Shown: piece by piece, positions 54,713-64,000 of the stretch
Layout of the letters: each line of letters starts with the position of its first letter
How positions within the stretch are numbered: the stretch's first letter is position 1
Assembly (NCBI GenBank): GCA_018262505.1
Contig: JAGSYV010000011.1
Coordinates: 62,001 to 126,000, forward strand
Length of the DNA: 64,000 bases
From: Pseudomonadota bacterium
GTDB lineage: Bacteria > Pseudomonadota > Alphaproteobacteria > Rhizobiales > Pleomorphomonadaceae
Direction of reading: 5' to 3'
Notes under the pieces: generated by a model
Told to the model about the DNA's origin: nothing
The model's database searches: none
The model's input: only the letters and a program-made list of their open reading frames with translations
Program-made: the position numbers and the translations under genes

Positions 54713-54741
54713 CCCGCCGCCTGCTTCGGAAAGGCTCCGAG

Positions 54742-56412
54742 ATGATCCGCATTCTCCTGTCGGTCGCCGCGCTGTTCCTCGCCGTCCTCGCCTTCGATTG
54801 GCTGGGTGGCGTGCCGATCGCCGTCTCGGTCAGCTGGCCGGGTGGCGCGGCGGCGCCACCGCTACGCGTTGTCATCGTCGCGTTGCTGGTTTCCGCCGTC
54901 GTCCTGCTCGTCGTCTGGAAGCTCGTTTCCGGCCTTTGGCGGGCACCGCGCGGCCTGCGCACCTATTTTGCCGGTCGCCGCCGCGACCGGGGTTACCGCG
55001 CGCTGTCACGCGGCATGATCGCCGTCGGTTCGGGCGACTACCGCCTTGCCCAGCGCGAAGCCGCCGAGGCCAACCGTTTCCTCGAAAACGAACCGCTGGG
55101 GCTACTGCTTGCCGCCCAATCCGCCCAACTCGAAGGACGGAGCGACGCTGCTCGGCAGGCCTTCACGCGCATGCTGAAGGCGCCGGAAACGCGACTCCTC
55201 GGCCTCCGTGGCCTCTATATCGAGGCGACACGCGCCGGCGAGGCCGCCGCTGCCCGTCAGTTCGCTGTCGAGGCGCAGAAGGAGAATCCCGCCCTGCCCT
55301 GGGCCGGTGCCGCGATGATGGACTACCTCTCCGCCGACCGGAACTGGGGCGAGGCGCTGTCCGTACTCGACCAGAATGTCGCCGGCCGACTGGTCGGCAA
55401 GGGCGACGCCAATCGTCTCAGGGCCGTCCTGCTCACGGCCCGCGCCCTCGAGATCGAGGATGGCGAACCGGACAAGGCCCGGGCCTTCTCGCTGGAAGCG
55501 CACAAGATCGCACCCGACTTCGTGCCGGCCGCCACCGTCGCCGCCCGCACGCTGGCCCGTCAGCTCGATACGCGCCGAGCGGCAAAAGTGCTGGAAGCGA
55601 CCTGGAAGCTCACCCCGCATCCCGATCTCGCCACCGCCTACCTTCACCTCAGATCCGGCGATTCGGCACGCGACCGCCTGAAGCGCGCCCAGATGTTGGA
55701 GAACCTGAAGCCGGTCCATCCCGAAGGCCCCGTCACCGTCGCCCGCGCCGCCCTCGATGCCCGCGAATTCCCACTGGCCCGCGAGGCGCTGACCAAGGCG
55801 CTGCGACAGGCGCCGACCGAACGCGTCTGCCTGATGATGGCCGAACTTGAAGAGAGCGAGAGCAGTGACATTGGCCGTGTCCGCGAATGGCTGGGCCGCG
55901 CCGTGCGGGCGCCGCGCGACGCTGCCTGGACCGCCGATGGCCTGGTGCTCGATGCCTGGCAGCCGCTTTCCCCGCTGTCCGGCCGGCTCGATGCCGTGGA
56001 ATGGCGTGTGCCTGCCGAGCGCGAGGTCGGGGAAGCGATCGACGGTGACGACCTCGCCGTCATCGCGGCCAAGCCGACCCCGCCCGCCCCGAAAGAGGCA
56101 CTGCCGCTCGTGGAAGCGGAAGAGTCTCCGAGAACTCAGCCCCCCGTCATCGAACCGGAGACGATGCCCCCAGTGCCTGCCGCCGAGCCCAAACACGAGC
56201 CGGTGCTGGCGTCACCCAAGGTCGACACGATCGTCGCCCCCGCCAGCACCACCGCGCCCGCGAAGCCGTTGGTCGCGGCCGAGCCGCCGCGGGCGGAGAG
56301 TGGTCCCGGCATAGATCCGCTGGCGGTACTGCCTCCCCCACCCGACGATCCGGGGCCAGCCAACGGCAAGGGGCTTGCCCACAGCCTGGCGCCACAATCG
56401 CCCTTCTCGTGA
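54742..56412 (+). CDS. hemY: HemY-family inner-membrane TPR protein
   Basis: A 556-residue member of the proteobacterial HemY family (not protoporphyrinogen oxidase). Two N-terminal transmembrane helices (IRILLSVAALFLAVLAFDWL and VVIVALLVSAVVLLVVWKLV) are followed by tetratricopeptide-like helices from about residue 85 to 380. The C-terminal 150 residues are Pro/Ala/Glu-rich and low complexity. The function is unclear, but the gene is conserved after hemC and hemD. ATG 54742, 29 bases after the hemD stop, replaces the longer frame in the track. Confidence 0.88.
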   Translation: MIRILLSVAALFLAVLAFDWLGGVPIAVSVSWPGGAAAPPLRVVIVALLVSAVVLLVVWKLVSGLWRAPRGLRTYFAGRRRDRGYRALSRGMIAVGSGDYRLAQREAAEANRFLENEPLGLLLAAQSAQLEGRSDAARQAFTRMLKAPETRLLGLRGLYIEATRAGEAAAARQFAVEAQKENPALPWAGAAMMDYLSADRNWGEALSVLDQNVAGRLVGKGDANRLRAVLLTARALEIEDGEPDKARAFSLEAHKIAPDFVPAATVAARTLARQLDTRRAAKVLEATWKLTPHPDLATAYLHLRSGDSARDRLKRAQMLENLKPVHPEGPVTVARAALDAREFPLAREALTKALRQAPTERVCLMMAELEESESSDIGRVREWLGRAVRAPRDAAWTADGLVLDAWQPLSPLSGRLDAVEWRVPAEREVGEAIDGDDLAVIAAKPTPPAPKEALPLVEAEESPRTQPPVIEPETMPPVPAAEPKHEPVLASPKVDTIVAPASTTAPAKPLVAAEPPRAESGPGIDPLAVLPPPPDDPGPANGKGLAHSLAPQSPFS

Positions 56413-56513: not shown

Positions 56514-56547
56514 GCCGCACTAGCTCAGTTGGTAGAGCACGTCATTC
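56514..56547 (+). tRNA. 5' half of a tRNA gene, probably tRNA-Thr(CGT), truncated in the anticodon loop
   Basis: GCCGCAC-TA-GCTC-AGTTGGTA-GAGC-A-CGTCA-TTC reads as acceptor arm, D arm, and the anticodon stem plus the first bases of the loop. The D arm pairs (GCTC/GAGC). The CGTCATTC anticodon arm is that of bacterial tRNA-Thr(CGT), which continues GTAATGATG. Here it is followed by unrelated sequence, so the TpsiC arm and 3' acceptor strand are missing. The breakpoint in the anticodon loop is a classic phage integration crossover, but a plain deletion would look the same. Confidence 0.65.
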
Positions 56548-56679
56548 TATGTTAGGCCCACTCGGCCCTGTTGTTATCCCTCTTCTGCTCCACCTTTCTG
56601 TGACTGATCACGCTGCTTTGCGTCGCTCTGCCTTGAGCCACACATATCCAAGCCTTTGTTCGCATCTTTCGTAGCGTGA

Positions 56680-57036
56680 TCAAGGATCTTCCCGCTTTCC
56701 GCTAGCCACGATCGAAAGCGTCCCGTCTGGCAATGGGCGTTGAAGGGCTCGCGCCTCCCCCCAAGGGGCGTTTAGCCACACGTCGACCTCTTCCGGATTT
56801 GTGAGGATGACAGGCATCGCTTTTGGATGAATCGGAGCCACCTCCGCATTGGCATCCGTAGTCAAGAATCCATAGAGCAAGTGCTCTCCCTCGACCGGGT
56901 CTGATTTCGGCCCTCGTGTGCCATGCCATTTGGTCCAGACTCCCGCGAAGAAAAATAGCGGGCGGTCTTCGCCGAGCGCGAACCATGTGGGCGTCTTTTT
57001 CGGTTTCGTGTCGGCGTATTCGCAAAAGGACGACAC
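56680..57036 (-). pseudogene. C-terminal half of an SRAP (SOS response-associated peptidase) protein
   Basis: 118 residues corresponding to the second half of the SRAP/HMCES/YedK fold that crosslinks to abasic sites in single-stranded DNA: SSFCEYADTKPKKTPTWFALGEDRPLFFFAGVW, GFLTTDANAEVAPIHPKAMPVIL, and the end IVASGKREDP. The conserved active-site His falls in IHPKAMPV. The N-terminal half, about 100 residues including the catalytic Cys2, is absent; upstream lies unrelated A/T-rich DNA. It is a fragment and cannot crosslink DNA. Confidence 0.85.
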
Positions 57037-57177
57037 AGGCCTGGGGCGCCAAATTTTAAATATTATGTTGAAATATCAATTATTTATGTATTTTAGTTAC
57101 ACACTATCCGCCAGTTGCTCCACCTTTTGAACGTTGGTTAAGTGCCTTTGGGCAGGCGATCACTCAGGAGGCAACCC

Positions 57178-59303: not shown

Positions 59304-62300
59304 TCACCGCTTCTCCGGCTCTGGATCAAGCGCCGGGTCTATGACGTGCGCGAACAACGGCCGCACGAACCAGAGACCAATGAACGGCGCCAATCGCTTG
59401 GCGAGCACGTAATCTGAGTGCGTGGCCGGGTTCCCTTTCATGATGTTGGCGATCGTCGCCGGCACTGTGGCGATGTCCCGCGCTGTGCCAGCTGTTGGCC
59501 CGAGCAAACTGTCAACAACACTGCGCGAAGCAAACCGGCTCGCCGGGGCGCGCTGGCTACTGCCGGGGAAGGCCGCCGCCGCTCCGGTATAGATGCCCGG
59601 CAATCCCATTTTCTCGAATGTATTGTTCGCCTCGAACAGCACGGAAAAGACGCCGCTGCGGTCCAGCCCTTCAGCGATCCACGTTCCCGGATTGTCGGAA
59701 ACGTCCGTTCCGAAAGCGACGTGGCGAAGCCAATAGATGAACATGCCGATGGTTGCCATTCCGGTTACGCCGCCAATGAAACGTGTCTGCCCTTCCTGAA
59801 GGCCGCGAATGAGCACGCGCTGATTTGCGGCAATGGTGAAGCTCTTGAACTGGAGCAGCGACTTGCCGATCGGCGTGCTCGCCAGCAACGGCACATCGCC
59901 GACACCCTTGGTGACGATGATCGAGGAGACGTCCTTGGCGACGGCCGCGCGGAACGCCTGGCGCAATGCGTCGCCGGCCGGGGCAGCGGCCCATGCCTCG
60001 GTGTTGGCGACATGGACACCGTCGACCGTCTCGCCGTGCTTGATGAACAGCTCGCCGAGCCGTTCGGCTCGCTCCTGGCCGATGCCAAGATATCCCATGT
60101 AAGCCCGCTCGCGTTCGGGCAGCGACGCAAAGCCGTCCTTCGCCGCCTTCATGGCGTTGTCGAAAATGCGGTTCTGCGTCATGCGAGAGGCAAAGGCCCG
60201 GTTGAAATCGTCCCATAGATCGAGACCGGTCATTCTGGAAAACCGCGTCGATAGGTTCTCCATGAGCCGTTCAATGACCGTGCCCTGTCGGTACGGGTCG
60301 GTGATTTCCGACAGCGCCGCCATGCGGGAATGAAGAATGGTCTCGCCGACGGCGCCAGCTAGCTTGGCCTCCTTGGCGCTCATCCTGACGCCCTGAAGCC
60401 CATGGAGCAGCGGGCCTAGGCCGTCTTTCACATAGGAGCGAAGCCCGTGAACCATGGCGGGCCGGGCGGCATCGGCGAGCGAGCCGATGACAACCCCGCC
60501 CATCATGCGGGTGTAGTTGAAGACGCGGGCCGCTGCGAGCGTCCGCGCCCAGGGCTCGCCGGCCGACTGCATGCCATAGGTGCCGCGCAACATGTCGCGC
60601 ACCGCCTCGATGTCGCGAATATCGGCGCGCTCGCGGGCGCCAAGCTTCTTCCTGTCTGCACCTGGCAGCTCGCGCAGGCGCGCATACTCGGTGCGGATCT
60701 CCGCGATTTGGTCCTTGAGCGTTGGCGAGCCGTAGCGTTTGGCCAATTCGATATCGGCGGCCATGATGCGGGCATAGCGCCGGCCGACCAACTCGATATC
60801 GTTCTCCAGAAAGTCCTCGACGAGGTGGTCGGGAATGCCGAAAGTGCGGCCTTTCAGCGGACCACGCGCCGCCATGACGGGTTGGAAGTTGGTCGACACG
60901 CCGCCGCGCCCGGTAAGCTGGTTGAAAATGTCGTCGACAATTTCATTGATGTAGTCGGCCCGGTCGGCAGCGCTGACAAAATCGAGATCGCCACGGCGGC
61001 CAGTCCCTGGCGCCGTGGCATCGAGCGCCGCTCTCAGCTTTGCGACGGTCTGCCGGTCCTTGGCGTTGAGGCTTTCGGCAACGCGCTTTGCGAAGTTCTT
61101 CAGGTCGTCGGCGGTGGCGAACATCTGCTGTTTCACGCCAACGTCGACACCCATGCGGCCGAGATCGGCGACAACCTGGTCGAACACGTCGGCATCTGCG
61201 GCGGCGGCCCTATCGGCTTCTCTGACCACCCGGCGACGACCGCCGAAATCATCGGCCAAGTGGTCTAGGAGATCGTTCGCGGTCGGCCGATCTGCGGACT
61301 GGATGAAACCTTCGTCCCAAGCCAAGCGCGCGGCGGTATCGAGATCTAGCCCGCCATCCTTGTTCGTCAGCGTCTGCTTTTGCTTCCGGACAAAGCCGGG
61401 GCGGGTCTTGTTGGAAATGCCCAGCGCTTCCAGTTCGCCGCGTTCGTCGAACAATCCGCCTTTGCGGTGAAGGAACTGCGTCAGCTTTTCGGGTGCTGGC
61501 GCCTTTGTCTTGGCGCGGATGTGGTCGACTGCCCGCAATATCTGCCGTTCCGTCTCGGCATCGACAGCGATTTCGCCGCCGGCCTCGCGGCGCTTTGCAT
61601 CCTCTGCCCGGCGGAGCATGGTCATTTCGAGATCGTCGATTTCCGACTGAAGCAAATTGGCTTTCTTTGCAGCCTTCGCCGACTGGCTTTCCGCCTGGAC
61701 GGTGATTTGGTCATCGGCCCAGCGCCGCACGATGTCGCGAAACTCTCCTTCGCGCGCTTCCAGCACCGGCCGGCGCCACATGCGGCTGAAATAACTCTCG
61801 GCTGTTGTGACATCCACATCCGCAGGCAAAAGGCCGGCGTCGATTGCCTGTTGCTTCAGCGGATCGAACACCTTGGAGCGCCACGCCTCGGCCGCTTCGG
61901 TGGCGCCGGCAACGCTGCTCTTGTCGCCGCGCCGCATGGCCCGGCCGGCCTCAGTGTTGAAATCGTCGAGGCTCATGGCGAGCCCGGCCTTTCGAGCGTC
62001 GGCGTAGGCGGCGCGGTTCGCCTCGATGGCATCAGCAGCGGCGCCGATCGACCATTGCCGCATTGCGCTTTCCGCCGCCGCATCGCCCGCGCCTTCAAGG
62101 TTCTTGGTGAGATAAACGGGGTTCTCCATCAGGCCGGCAGCCACTTGGCGGACGGCGAGAGACGGACTCTGGAGCGTGCGCAGAAGCGGATTGAGTTGCG
62201 CCGTCGCCTTTGCCGTCGCGCGCGCCGCCTTACCGGCGATCTCGTAGTCGGCGAGCTTTTCAGGGGCGACGCCTTGGGCGCCAATTCCCTGCGGTAGAGG

Positions 62301-63047
62301 CTGGTTGCCCCCGAGCTCGTTGGCATAGGCTGTCATTTCCCGGTGAAGAGCATCGGTCGCCGCGTCGGCATCAGGCGCTTTCACCTTGTCGACGGCCGCC
62401 GATCCCTGGAAATGGTCGATCGCGGATAGCGCGCCGTGTGCGGCGCCTCCCAAAAGGCCACCGAGCAGCACCGAGCCGCCAACGTTGTACAAGCTGTCTT
62501 CGGCCGTCCGCGTCTCCTGGCTGGCCTGGAGCGCCATTTCTTGGGCCAACGTGGCGCCGCCGGCAGCGAGCCCCACATCAAGCCCGGCGCGGATCAAGCC
62601 AACGCCGGCCCGTGCACCACGCAAGCCGACCCCACCCGGAAGGAAAAGGGTCGGATCGGCGAGACTGGCGCCGATATCGAAAGCCGTCCCGACCCAGCCC
62701 GACTTTGCGCGTGTCGCCTTGTCGCGGCGCTCCATGTCGATTTGCGCTTTGACCTGGTCGCCGGCCTTGGCGTTGAACACCTCGAGGAAGCGCTCGGGTT
62801 GGTCGTCGTAGCCCTCGAGGTAGTTGCCGGCGTAGGGCGAGAAGGACGGATCGACCTTGTAAAAGTCGCCCGTTGCTTTGTCGTAAAGGGTTTTGTTCGT
62901 CAGGATGGACGTGATGGGGTTGTTCTGCCGGAACGACGCGACGGCGGTATCGGCAAGGCTCGGCTCGGTTTCAGGCACGGCGCCAAGCTTCTGGCTGACG
63001 AGGTAGTCGGCAACGGGGCCAACGGTGCTGGTTTCATCGAACGGCAT
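59304..63047 (-). CDS. large phage internal virion protein-like protein
   Basis: A 1,247-residue phage protein. Long alpha-helical, Ala- and Lys-rich regions alternate with Gly/Ala-rich amphipathic stretches (SLADPTLFLPGGVGLRGARAGVGLIRAGLDVGLAAGGATLAQEMAL; NVGGSVLLGGLLGGAAHGALSAI), and the C-terminus has a membrane-active appearance (FIGGVTGMATIGMFIYWLRHVAFG). This architecture is typical of internal-core/DNA-ejection proteins of short-tailed phages. The frame is intact. It is followed upstream (9 bases) by another virion-gene frame. Exact family membership needs a profile search. Confidence 0.65.
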   Translation of the reverse strand: MPFDETSTVGPVADYLVSQKLGAVPETEPSLADTAVASFRQNNPITSILTNKTLYDKATGDFYKVDPSFSPYAGNYLEGYDDQPERFLEVFNAKAGDQVKAQIDMERRDKATRAKSGWVGTAFDIGASLADPTLFLPGGVGLRGARAGVGLIRAGLDVGLAAGGATLAQEMALQASQETRTAEDSLYNVGGSVLLGGLLGGAAHGALSAIDHFQGSAAVDKVKAPDADAATDALHREMTAYANELGGNQPLPQGIGAQGVAPEKLADYEIAGKAARATAKATAQLNPLLRTLQSPSLAVRQVAAGLMENPVYLTKNLEGAGDAAAESAMRQWSIGAAADAIEANRAAYADARKAGLAMSLDDFNTEAGRAMRRGDKSSVAGATEAAEAWRSKVFDPLKQQAIDAGLLPADVDVTTAESYFSRMWRRPVLEAREGEFRDIVRRWADDQITVQAESQSAKAAKKANLLQSEIDDLEMTMLRRAEDAKRREAGGEIAVDAETERQILRAVDHIRAKTKAPAPEKLTQFLHRKGGLFDERGELEALGISNKTRPGFVRKQKQTLTNKDGGLDLDTAARLAWDEGFIQSADRPTANDLLDHLADDFGGRRRVVREADRAAAADADVFDQVVADLGRMGVDVGVKQQMFATADDLKNFAKRVAESLNAKDRQTVAKLRAALDATAPGTGRRGDLDFVSAADRADYINEIVDDIFNQLTGRGGVSTNFQPVMAARGPLKGRTFGIPDHLVEDFLENDIELVGRRYARIMAADIELAKRYGSPTLKDQIAEIRTEYARLRELPGADRKKLGARERADIRDIEAVRDMLRGTYGMQSAGEPWARTLAAARVFNYTRMMGGVVIGSLADAARPAMVHGLRSYVKDGLGPLLHGLQGVRMSAKEAKLAGAVGETILHSRMAALSEITDPYRQGTVIERLMENLSTRFSRMTGLDLWDDFNRAFASRMTQNRIFDNAMKAAKDGFASLPERERAYMGYLGIGQERAERLGELFIKHGETVDGVHVANTEAWAAAPAGDALRQAFRAAVAKDVSSIIVTKGVGDVPLLASTPIGKSLLQFKSFTIAANQRVLIRGLQEGQTRFIGGVTGMATIGMFIYWLRHVAFGTDVSDNPGTWIAEGLDRSGVFSVLFEANNTFEKMGLPGIYTGAAAAFPGSSQRAPASRFASRSVVDSLLGPTAGTARDIATVPATIANIMKGNPATHSDYVLAKRLAPFIGLWFVRPLFAHVIDPALDPEPEKR

Positions 63048-63056
63048 CTTTGGACC

Positions 63057-64000
63057 TCACTCGCTGGCTTTGGCTGGTTTGACGGCCGGGACGGTCATCG
63101 GCCCTGGCGGCATGTCTGACGGACTGATGTCCGATGTCGTCGCTTGGTCGGGCTCAGGGGTGCTCAACTCGATTTTCGGCGCCGGTCCCGTCACCAATTG
63201 ATCGGGCGCCATGTCGGCCGGGCTGATGTCCGCGTTCCATTGCATTTCGCCCTGGCGGATTGCCTCAAGCTCTGTGATCCGGTTCGGATCTGTCACCGGC
63301 TTGCCGCTGCCATCGGGCGGGGTGGCGAAGAAGCGGGCGGGAGCGAGCTGATATTTCCCGTCGCTGTCTATGTACCAAGCCTGATAGCGCGGCGCGCGGC
63401 CGGCTCGAACGTCGGCCTCCGTCGTCTCATCGGGGACAAGGAAGATGGCCTTCGGCTGGATGCCCTTTGAGGTGAGATCCGCAAGCGCCTGCTGGCGGAT
63501 GTAATCATGGCTTCCCTTGGGGTCGGCCGGATAGGCTTTCTCCGGCGGCAGGAACATCACGGCGTCAGGGCCATCCATTGATAGGGCGGACGTTCCGTAG
63601 CGCCGTTGAAACCGATCGTTGGCGAGCTTGGTCCCGGCGTCCAAGTCGCCGCCGGCATCGAACACGGCTTCGGTCAGCGTCTCCCGGTAGTCGCTGACGA
63701 TCGCAGCCGATTGCGCGGTGGTCTTGCCAAGCGTTGGCGGGCTGGAAAACCATCCGCCGCCGAACAGCGAGCGAACGTCGCTTTCGGTGGCCGCCGCGTC
63801 GATCGCCTTTCTCATCGGTTCGGCGTCCATCAGCGCGGCGCGCTGGCGGACCTTCTCCGGATCTTGGGCATCGAGTATGCGCCGCGTGGCTTCAGTCGGC
63901 GAAAGCCCGACCGACGACGTGTAGTGATCGAACAGCGCGACTTGATCCGCCAGCGCGCCACCCGATGGCGAGCGAGCCAGCGCCCCAGCGTTCACGGCGC
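63057..64000 (-). CDS. phage protein, probable virion component (5' end outside window)
   Basis: At least 314 residues, open at the right edge; the Met at 63995 is probably internal. Sequence features: LFDHYTSSVGLSPTEATRRILDAQDP, a Pro-rich region, and near the C-terminus two short repeats ISPADMAPDQ and ISPSDMPPGP. It has the helical, low-cysteine composition of internal virion or scaffold proteins. It is translated just upstream of the large internal protein and is presumably co-transcribed with it. Confidence 0.55.
   Translation of the reverse strand, partial: AVNAGALARSPSGGALADQVALFDHYTSSVGLSPTEATRRILDAQDPEKVRQRAALMDAEPMRKAIDAAATESDVRSLFGGGWFSSPPTLGKTTAQSAAIVSDYRETLTEAVFDAGGDLDAGTKLANDRFQRRYGTSALSMDGPDAVMFLPPEKAYPADPKGSHDYIRQQALADLTSKGIQPKAIFLVPDETTEADVRAGRAPRYQAWYIDSDGKYQLAPARFFATPPDGSGKPVTDPNRITELEAIRQGEMQWNADISPADMAPDQLVTGPAPKIELSTPEPDQATTSDISPSDMPPGPMTVPAVKPAKASE

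What the first reader, a model, noticed from the sequence alone, without database searches (positions are those of the whole stretch)
56514..56547. tRNA-Thr gene cut in the anticodon loop at the prophage edge
Only the 5' half remains. Tyrosine-recombinase phages normally rebuild the tRNA from their own attachment site, so a half tRNA in direct contact with phage-side DNA means either this is the distal junction, the element has lost its integrase end, or a deletion destroyed the gene.
Basis: partly seen in the sequence, partly recalled or inferred. Interest (0 to 1): 0.5.

Follow-up and report, generated by a model that had tools for sequence, protein, structure and literature searches.

The report
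Deletion-damaged tRNA at mobile element end
A 15-kb mobile element sits in the only assembled copy of a threonine tRNA gene, as such elements ordinarily do, but here a small secondary deletion (or an assembly error) has removed the rebuilt 3' part of the tRNA together with the end the element needs to leave; this is a minor but clean example of a known kind of damage.

Summary
Window 56514-56547 is exactly nt 1-34 of a tRNA-Thr(CGT), 100% identical to the gene of 11 congeners (probably Pleomorphomonas), followed at once by mobile-element DNA. No other copy and no 3' half occurs in the assembled genome.

The break is not the integration crossover. The contig runs on past the window to a tyrosine integrase (70412-71638), then a 16-bp piece of the tRNA 3' end (nt 61-76, 71768-71783), then the flank expected at the empty site. 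Two congeners carry the same element at the same tRNA, with the tRNA whole. In 8 more distant integrase relatives the shared repeat starts at the same place and the tRNA is whole. Crossover at nt 61-76 cannot remove nt 35-60.

So integration was ordinary and attL was damaged afterwards: about 70 bp are missing (42 bp of tRNA, about 28 bp of element end). Expected consequences (inferred): no tRNA-Thr(CGT), ACG read only by tRNA-Thr(TGT), and an element that can no longer excise although its integrase gene is open. An assembly error in this 90%-complete draft cannot be excluded without reads. The element is small and satellite-like, not a full prophage. Low interest.

The parts
54727..56412 (+). 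Left chromosomal flank: hemY (heme-biosynthesis-associated TPR protein), upstream neighbour of the tRNA in all close congeners
   Evidence: Pfam HemY_N E 8.6e-26; synteny with tRNA-Thr(CGT) in congeners
56514..56547 (+). 5' 34 nt of tRNA-Thr(CGT), cut after C34 of the anticodon; non-functional remnant
   Evidence: 100% identical to nt 1-34 of the tRNA-Thr(CGT) of 11 congeners; no 3' half anywhere in the assembly
56547..56548 (.). Junction of the inferred deletion of about 70 bp (tRNA nt 35-76 plus about 28 bp of the element's left end, including the attL core)
   Evidence: Alignment with attL of G006 (L084) and G013 (L085): TGCTCCACC lies 38 bp after the break here, 66-67 bp after the intact tRNA there
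56586..56597 (+). Arm-type repeat TGCTCCACCTTT of the element's left end (further copies of TGCTCCACC at 57116, 71609 and 71621, the last two beside the integrase start)
   Evidence: Repeat scan; same repeat at the left end of L084 and L085
56680..57036 (-). C-terminal part of an SRAP (SOS-response-associated peptidase) gene, truncated
   Evidence: PF02586 positions 104-202 of 214, E 1.8e-13
59304..63047 (-). 1247-aa internal-virion-protein-like gene of the element
   Evidence: phrog_16310 E 2e-144; phrog_342 (internal virion protein with endolysin domain) E 4.5e-92
63057..64000 (-). Part in the window of a 929-aa lysozyme-domain gene (whole gene 63057-65846). The element continues past the window: DUF3987 helicase-primase 67524-69698(-), integrase 70412-71638(-), attR (tRNA nt 61-76) 71768-71783, then rubrerythrin and secF
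   Evidence: PF00959 E 1.6e-8, DUF3987 E 4.4e-89, PF13356/PF22022/PF00589; attR; rubrerythrin and SecF

Best explanation
A small tyrosine-integrase element integrated in the ordinary way into the 3' end (nt 61-76: 3' strand of the T stem, acceptor stem, ACCA) of the single tRNA-Thr(CGT) gene between hemY and rubrerythrin. Its attP would have rebuilt the gene at the left end (attL) and displaced a 16-bp tRNA 3' end to the right of the integrase (attR). Later, a short deletion across attL, about 70 bp from anticodon nt 35 to about 28 bp inside the element, removed the rebuilt 3' part of the tRNA and the left crossover core. Shown: the 5' half, attR with a colinear chromosome, whole tRNAs with the same element in two congeners, and the nt 61-76 crossover region. 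Inferred: that the deletion is real and followed integration, that tRNA-Thr(CGT) function is lost, that ACG codons are read by tRNA-Thr(TGT), and that Int can no longer excise the element.
For: The break is at nt 34 and only nt 1-34 remain. The empty site hemY - tRNA-Thr(CGT) - terminator-like repeat - rubrerythrin is intact in congeners, and the right flank of the element continues colinearly from tRNA nt 61 into that site. In G006 and G013 the same element (83-89% DNA identity over the shared segments) has a whole tRNA and the repeat CCGTCGTGCGGCACCA at both ends. In 8 of 8 distant integrase relatives with the target tRNA in view, the repeat shared by attR and tRNA starts 14-16 nt from the tRNA 3' end and the tRNA is whole. 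Crossover there leaves host nt 1-60 in place, so the loss of nt 35-60 needs a second event. The integrase is an open 408-aa frame, 94-96% identical to those of the intact relatives.
Against: No reads, so the deletion rests on one draft assembly (257 contigs, 89.85% complete). The exact ancestral left end of this element is unknown, so the 28-bp figure assumes the spacing of the two relatives. The remaining half is 34/34 identical to congeners while 150 bp of upstream flank is 85-94% identical, so the loss is either recent or an assembly artefact.
Confidence: 0.72

Rival explanations
1. Assembly or binning artefact: the true chromosome has a whole tRNA-Thr(CGT) at attL, and the assembler dropped about 70 bp or joined strain variants.
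For: Draft of 257 contigs, 89.85% complete. All 13 sampled congeners have the tRNA whole. The 5' half shows no decay. Other tRNAs expected in a complete set (Trp, Ile-GAT, Ala-TGC) were not seen either, so the assembly has gaps.
Against: The break is inside a 134,888-bp contig, not at a contig end. No fragment with the 3' half was left elsewhere in the assembly. The join is not at an obvious repeat; the 16-bp attL/attR repeat lies outside the breakpoint.
Confidence: 0.22
2. Integration with crossover in the anticodon loop, as used by other tyrosine integrases, with the 3' half at the far end.
For: The break lies in the anticodon loop; Islander counts 2083 of 3919 islands with anticodon-centred sites (PMC4383910).
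Against: attR holds only nt 61-76. Relatives of this integrase use nt 61-76. No 3' half (nt 35-76) is on the contig (best ungapped match 27 of 42, which is attR itself).
Confidence: 0.02
3. tRNA-dependent lysogeny: the element breaks the host tRNA on purpose and carries a replacement tRNA, as in mycobacteriophage Fionnbharth.
For: That system also leaves an unreconstructed tRNA gene at the attachment junction (PMC10865867).
Against: The element encodes no tRNA (ARAGORN and Rfam). The same element in two congeners rebuilds the tRNA.
Confidence: 0.01
4. Split or intron-containing tRNA gene: the 3' exon is elsewhere and the tRNA is made by splicing or trans-splicing at the anticodon loop.
For: The break lies where bacterial group I introns in tRNAs usually sit (own knowledge).
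Against: No group I intron. No 3' exon in the element or the assembled genome. Congeners have no intron.
Confidence: 0.01

Closest known systems
Genomic islands in tRNA genes with a T-stem/acceptor (J-type) attachment site, as catalogued in Islander (PMC4383910)
   Same: Tyrosine integrase, attB at the tRNA 3' end, displaced 3' tDNA fragment at the far end, tRNA rebuilt in the relatives
   Different: In this genome the rebuilt tRNA is destroyed, so a tDNA-based finder such as Islander, which starts from whole tDNAs, would be expected to miss the island
Grounded (excision-incompetent) prophages (PMC6379469, seen as abstract only)
   Same: Integrated element expected to be unable to excise because an attachment site is lost
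   Different: Here the integrase gene is open and only attL is lost; the element is small and satellite-like; non-excision is inferred, not measured
tRNA-dependent lysogeny (PMC10865867)
   Same: Host tRNA gene left unreconstructed at the attachment junction
   Different: No element-borne tRNA, and the same element normally rebuilds the tRNA

Membership tests
tRNA-integrated tyrosine-recombinase island (J-type site) | Tyrosine integrase gene inside the element | tested here: met
   PF13356, PF22022 and PF00589 in a 408-aa open frame
tRNA-integrated tyrosine-recombinase island (J-type site) | Displaced tRNA end fragment at the distal junction in the right orientation | tested here: met
   CCGTCGTGCGGCACCA (nt 61-76) at 71768-71783, + strand
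tRNA-integrated tyrosine-recombinase island (J-type site) | Target tRNA rebuilt at the proximal junction | tested here: not met
   Only nt 1-34 remain in this genome; met in congeners G006 and G013. Filed therefore as a damaged island, not an intact one
tRNA-integrated tyrosine-recombinase island (J-type site) | Flanks colinear with an empty site in relatives | tested here: met
   hemY on the left; terminator-like repeat and rubrerythrin on the right
Grounded prophage / immobilised element | Loss of a function or site needed for excision | tested here: met
   The attL core nt 61-76 is absent from the left junction
Grounded prophage / immobilised element | No excision product detectable | not testable with these tools
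   Needs reads or PCR
tRNA-dependent lysogeny | Element encodes a tRNA of the disrupted isotype | tested here: not met
   No tRNA in the element by ARAGORN or Rfam
Complete prophage | Capsid, portal and terminase genes | tested here: not met
   None recognised among the main frames; PHROGs hits only for internal virion protein, endolysin, primase-helicase, integrase and families of unknown function. Unrecognised small genes cannot be excluded

The most novel reading that the evidence does not exclude
A natural strain has truly lost its single tRNA-Thr(CGT) through an accident at a mobile element's attL: the element is locked in place, and a high-GC host (ACG is 41 of 121 Thr codons in six sampled genes) reads ACG only with a U34 tRNA.
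Probability: 0.55. Interest if true: 0.35.

Novelty: new member of a known kind. Interest (0 to 1): 0.2.

Why it matters
If real, it is a small natural experiment: a mobile element that borrows the end of a host tRNA exposes that tRNA to loss by attL damage, the same damage immobilises the element, and the host must read a frequent codon by wobble alone. Loss looks tolerable: the pattern for tRNA-Thr(CGT) is also missing from several other genomes of the order (118 of 143 good genomes have it), and E. coli strains lacking thrW were built and grown (PMC6599085). It also shows that the place where a tRNA is cut need not be the place where an element recombined.

Tried and rejected
Anticodon-loop crossover (attR has only nt 61-76). 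Distal-junction reading (integrase and attR are at the other end). Lost integrase (open 408-aa frame). Split gene or intron. tRNA carried by the element. CmoB, a wobble-modification enzyme that might help U34 read ACG, was not found above its cut-off, so that compensation route is not supported; it is over the cut-off in only 1 of the 14 control genomes. A paper search on Pleomorphomonas prophages gave nothing useful.

Full report
Observation. Window 56514-56547 (contig C3 118514-118547) is identical to nt 1-34 of the tRNA-Thr(CGT) of 11 congeners, whose copies are 76 nt long and identical to each other. The sequence leaves the tRNA after C34 of the anticodon and continues as TATGTTAGGCCC... 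ARAGORN and Rfam find no tRNA in the window or the element.

The genome. The window is C3:62001-126000 of a 5.28-Mb draft (257 contigs, 89.85% complete). The contig ends at 134888, so the far end of the element could be read. Of the 42 tRNA-family matches in the genome, none with a recognised anticodon is Thr-CGT; Thr-GGT and Thr-TGT are present. BLAST with the complete gene finds only the 34-nt half plus weak matches to other tRNAs; a 42-nt 3' half would have scored higher and is not there. Trp, Ile-GAT and Ala-TGC were also not seen, so the assembly has gaps.

The far end. To the right come a 1247-aa internal-virion-like protein, a 929-aa lysozyme-domain protein, a DUF3987 helicase-primase and a 408-aa tyrosine integrase at 70412-71638(-). 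Past the integrase start, at 71768-71783, lies CCGTCGTGCGGCACCA, tRNA nt 61-76, followed by CTTTTCCCC, a terminator-like inverted repeat, rubrerythrin and secF. This matches the empty site of congeners, where hemY, the whole tRNA and rubrerythrin lie within a few hundred bases. It is a normal attR.

The relatives. G006 and G013 carry the same element at the same tRNA, 14.9 and 15.7 kb between the repeats, with a whole tRNA at the left and the 16-bp repeat at both ends. A third congener, G012, has a shorter relative (about 6 kb, with only 80 residues of the integrase matched) behind a whole tRNA. Among integrase relatives from other alphaproteobacteria, most have a GGCACCA-type tRNA 3' end about 120-230 bp upstream of the integrase start. 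In the 8 loci where the target tRNA is in view (Leu, Thr or Phe), the shared repeat starts 14-16 nt from the tRNA 3' end and the tRNA is whole. The crossover region of this integrase is therefore the 3' end, the J-type site of Islander (PMC4383910), not the anticodon loop.

What happened. Crossover inside nt 61-76 leaves host nt 1-60 untouched at attL, so the loss of nt 35-60 needs another event. The left arm repeat TGCTCCACCTTT lies 66-67 bp after the tRNA in the two relatives but 38 bp after the break here; adding the 42 missing tRNA nt gives a deletion of about 70 bp. It takes out the tRNA and the attL core together. The mechanism of the deletion itself cannot be read, because the ancestral left end is not known.

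Consequences (inferred). Without attL the element should not excise although its integrase frame is open. ACG, 41 of 121 Thr codons in six sampled genes, would be read by tRNA-Thr(TGT). This is probably tolerable: 118 of 143 good genomes of the order match a strict Thr-CGT pattern and 25 do not, with no match in any sampled member of some families (the pattern is strict, so some of the 25 may be false negatives). E. coli strains lacking thrW were built and grown, and grew worse when the wobble modification of U34 was also removed (PMC6599085).

Rivals. The main rival is an assembly error. The junction is internal to a long contig and no orphan 3' half was left in the assembly, but the 5' half shows no decay and no reads were available. 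Anticodon-loop integration, tRNA-dependent lysogeny (PMC10865867) and a split or intron-bearing tRNA were each tested and contradicted.

Verdict. It is an ordinary integration with a damaged attL.

Noticed in passing
window 56548 to about 71783 (L103); L084 and L085: The element is a conserved package of about 15 kb: integrase, DUF3987 helicase-primase, a 1247-aa internal-virion-like protein and a 929-aa lysozyme-domain protein, with no recognised capsid, portal or terminase, kept in three congeners. It may be a satellite that carries its own DNA-ejection-type proteins.
   Followed up: partly
L085:1273-1836, L084:9188-9841, window 56680-57036: The left 2-3 kb and an inner slot of the element vary between congeners (IrrE-like metalloprotease matching a CapP defence model in G013, possible methyltransferase in G006, truncated SRAP gene here), like cargo slots.
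   Followed up: partly
L109, L111, L116, L118, L122, L123, L130, L134: Related integrases drive small elements (roughly 4-10 kb from integrase start to tRNA) in tRNA-Leu, Thr and Phe genes of Bartonella, Rhodobacteraceae and other alphaproteobacteria, with the integrase at the end away from the whole tRNA in all eight.
   Followed up: partly
order-wide genomes G051, G068, G071, G090, G101, G103, G120, G130, G132, G147, G156, G158: Several families of the order give no match to a strict tRNA-Thr(CGT) pattern, suggesting repeated natural loss of this tRNA; not verified with a tRNA finder.
   Followed up: no
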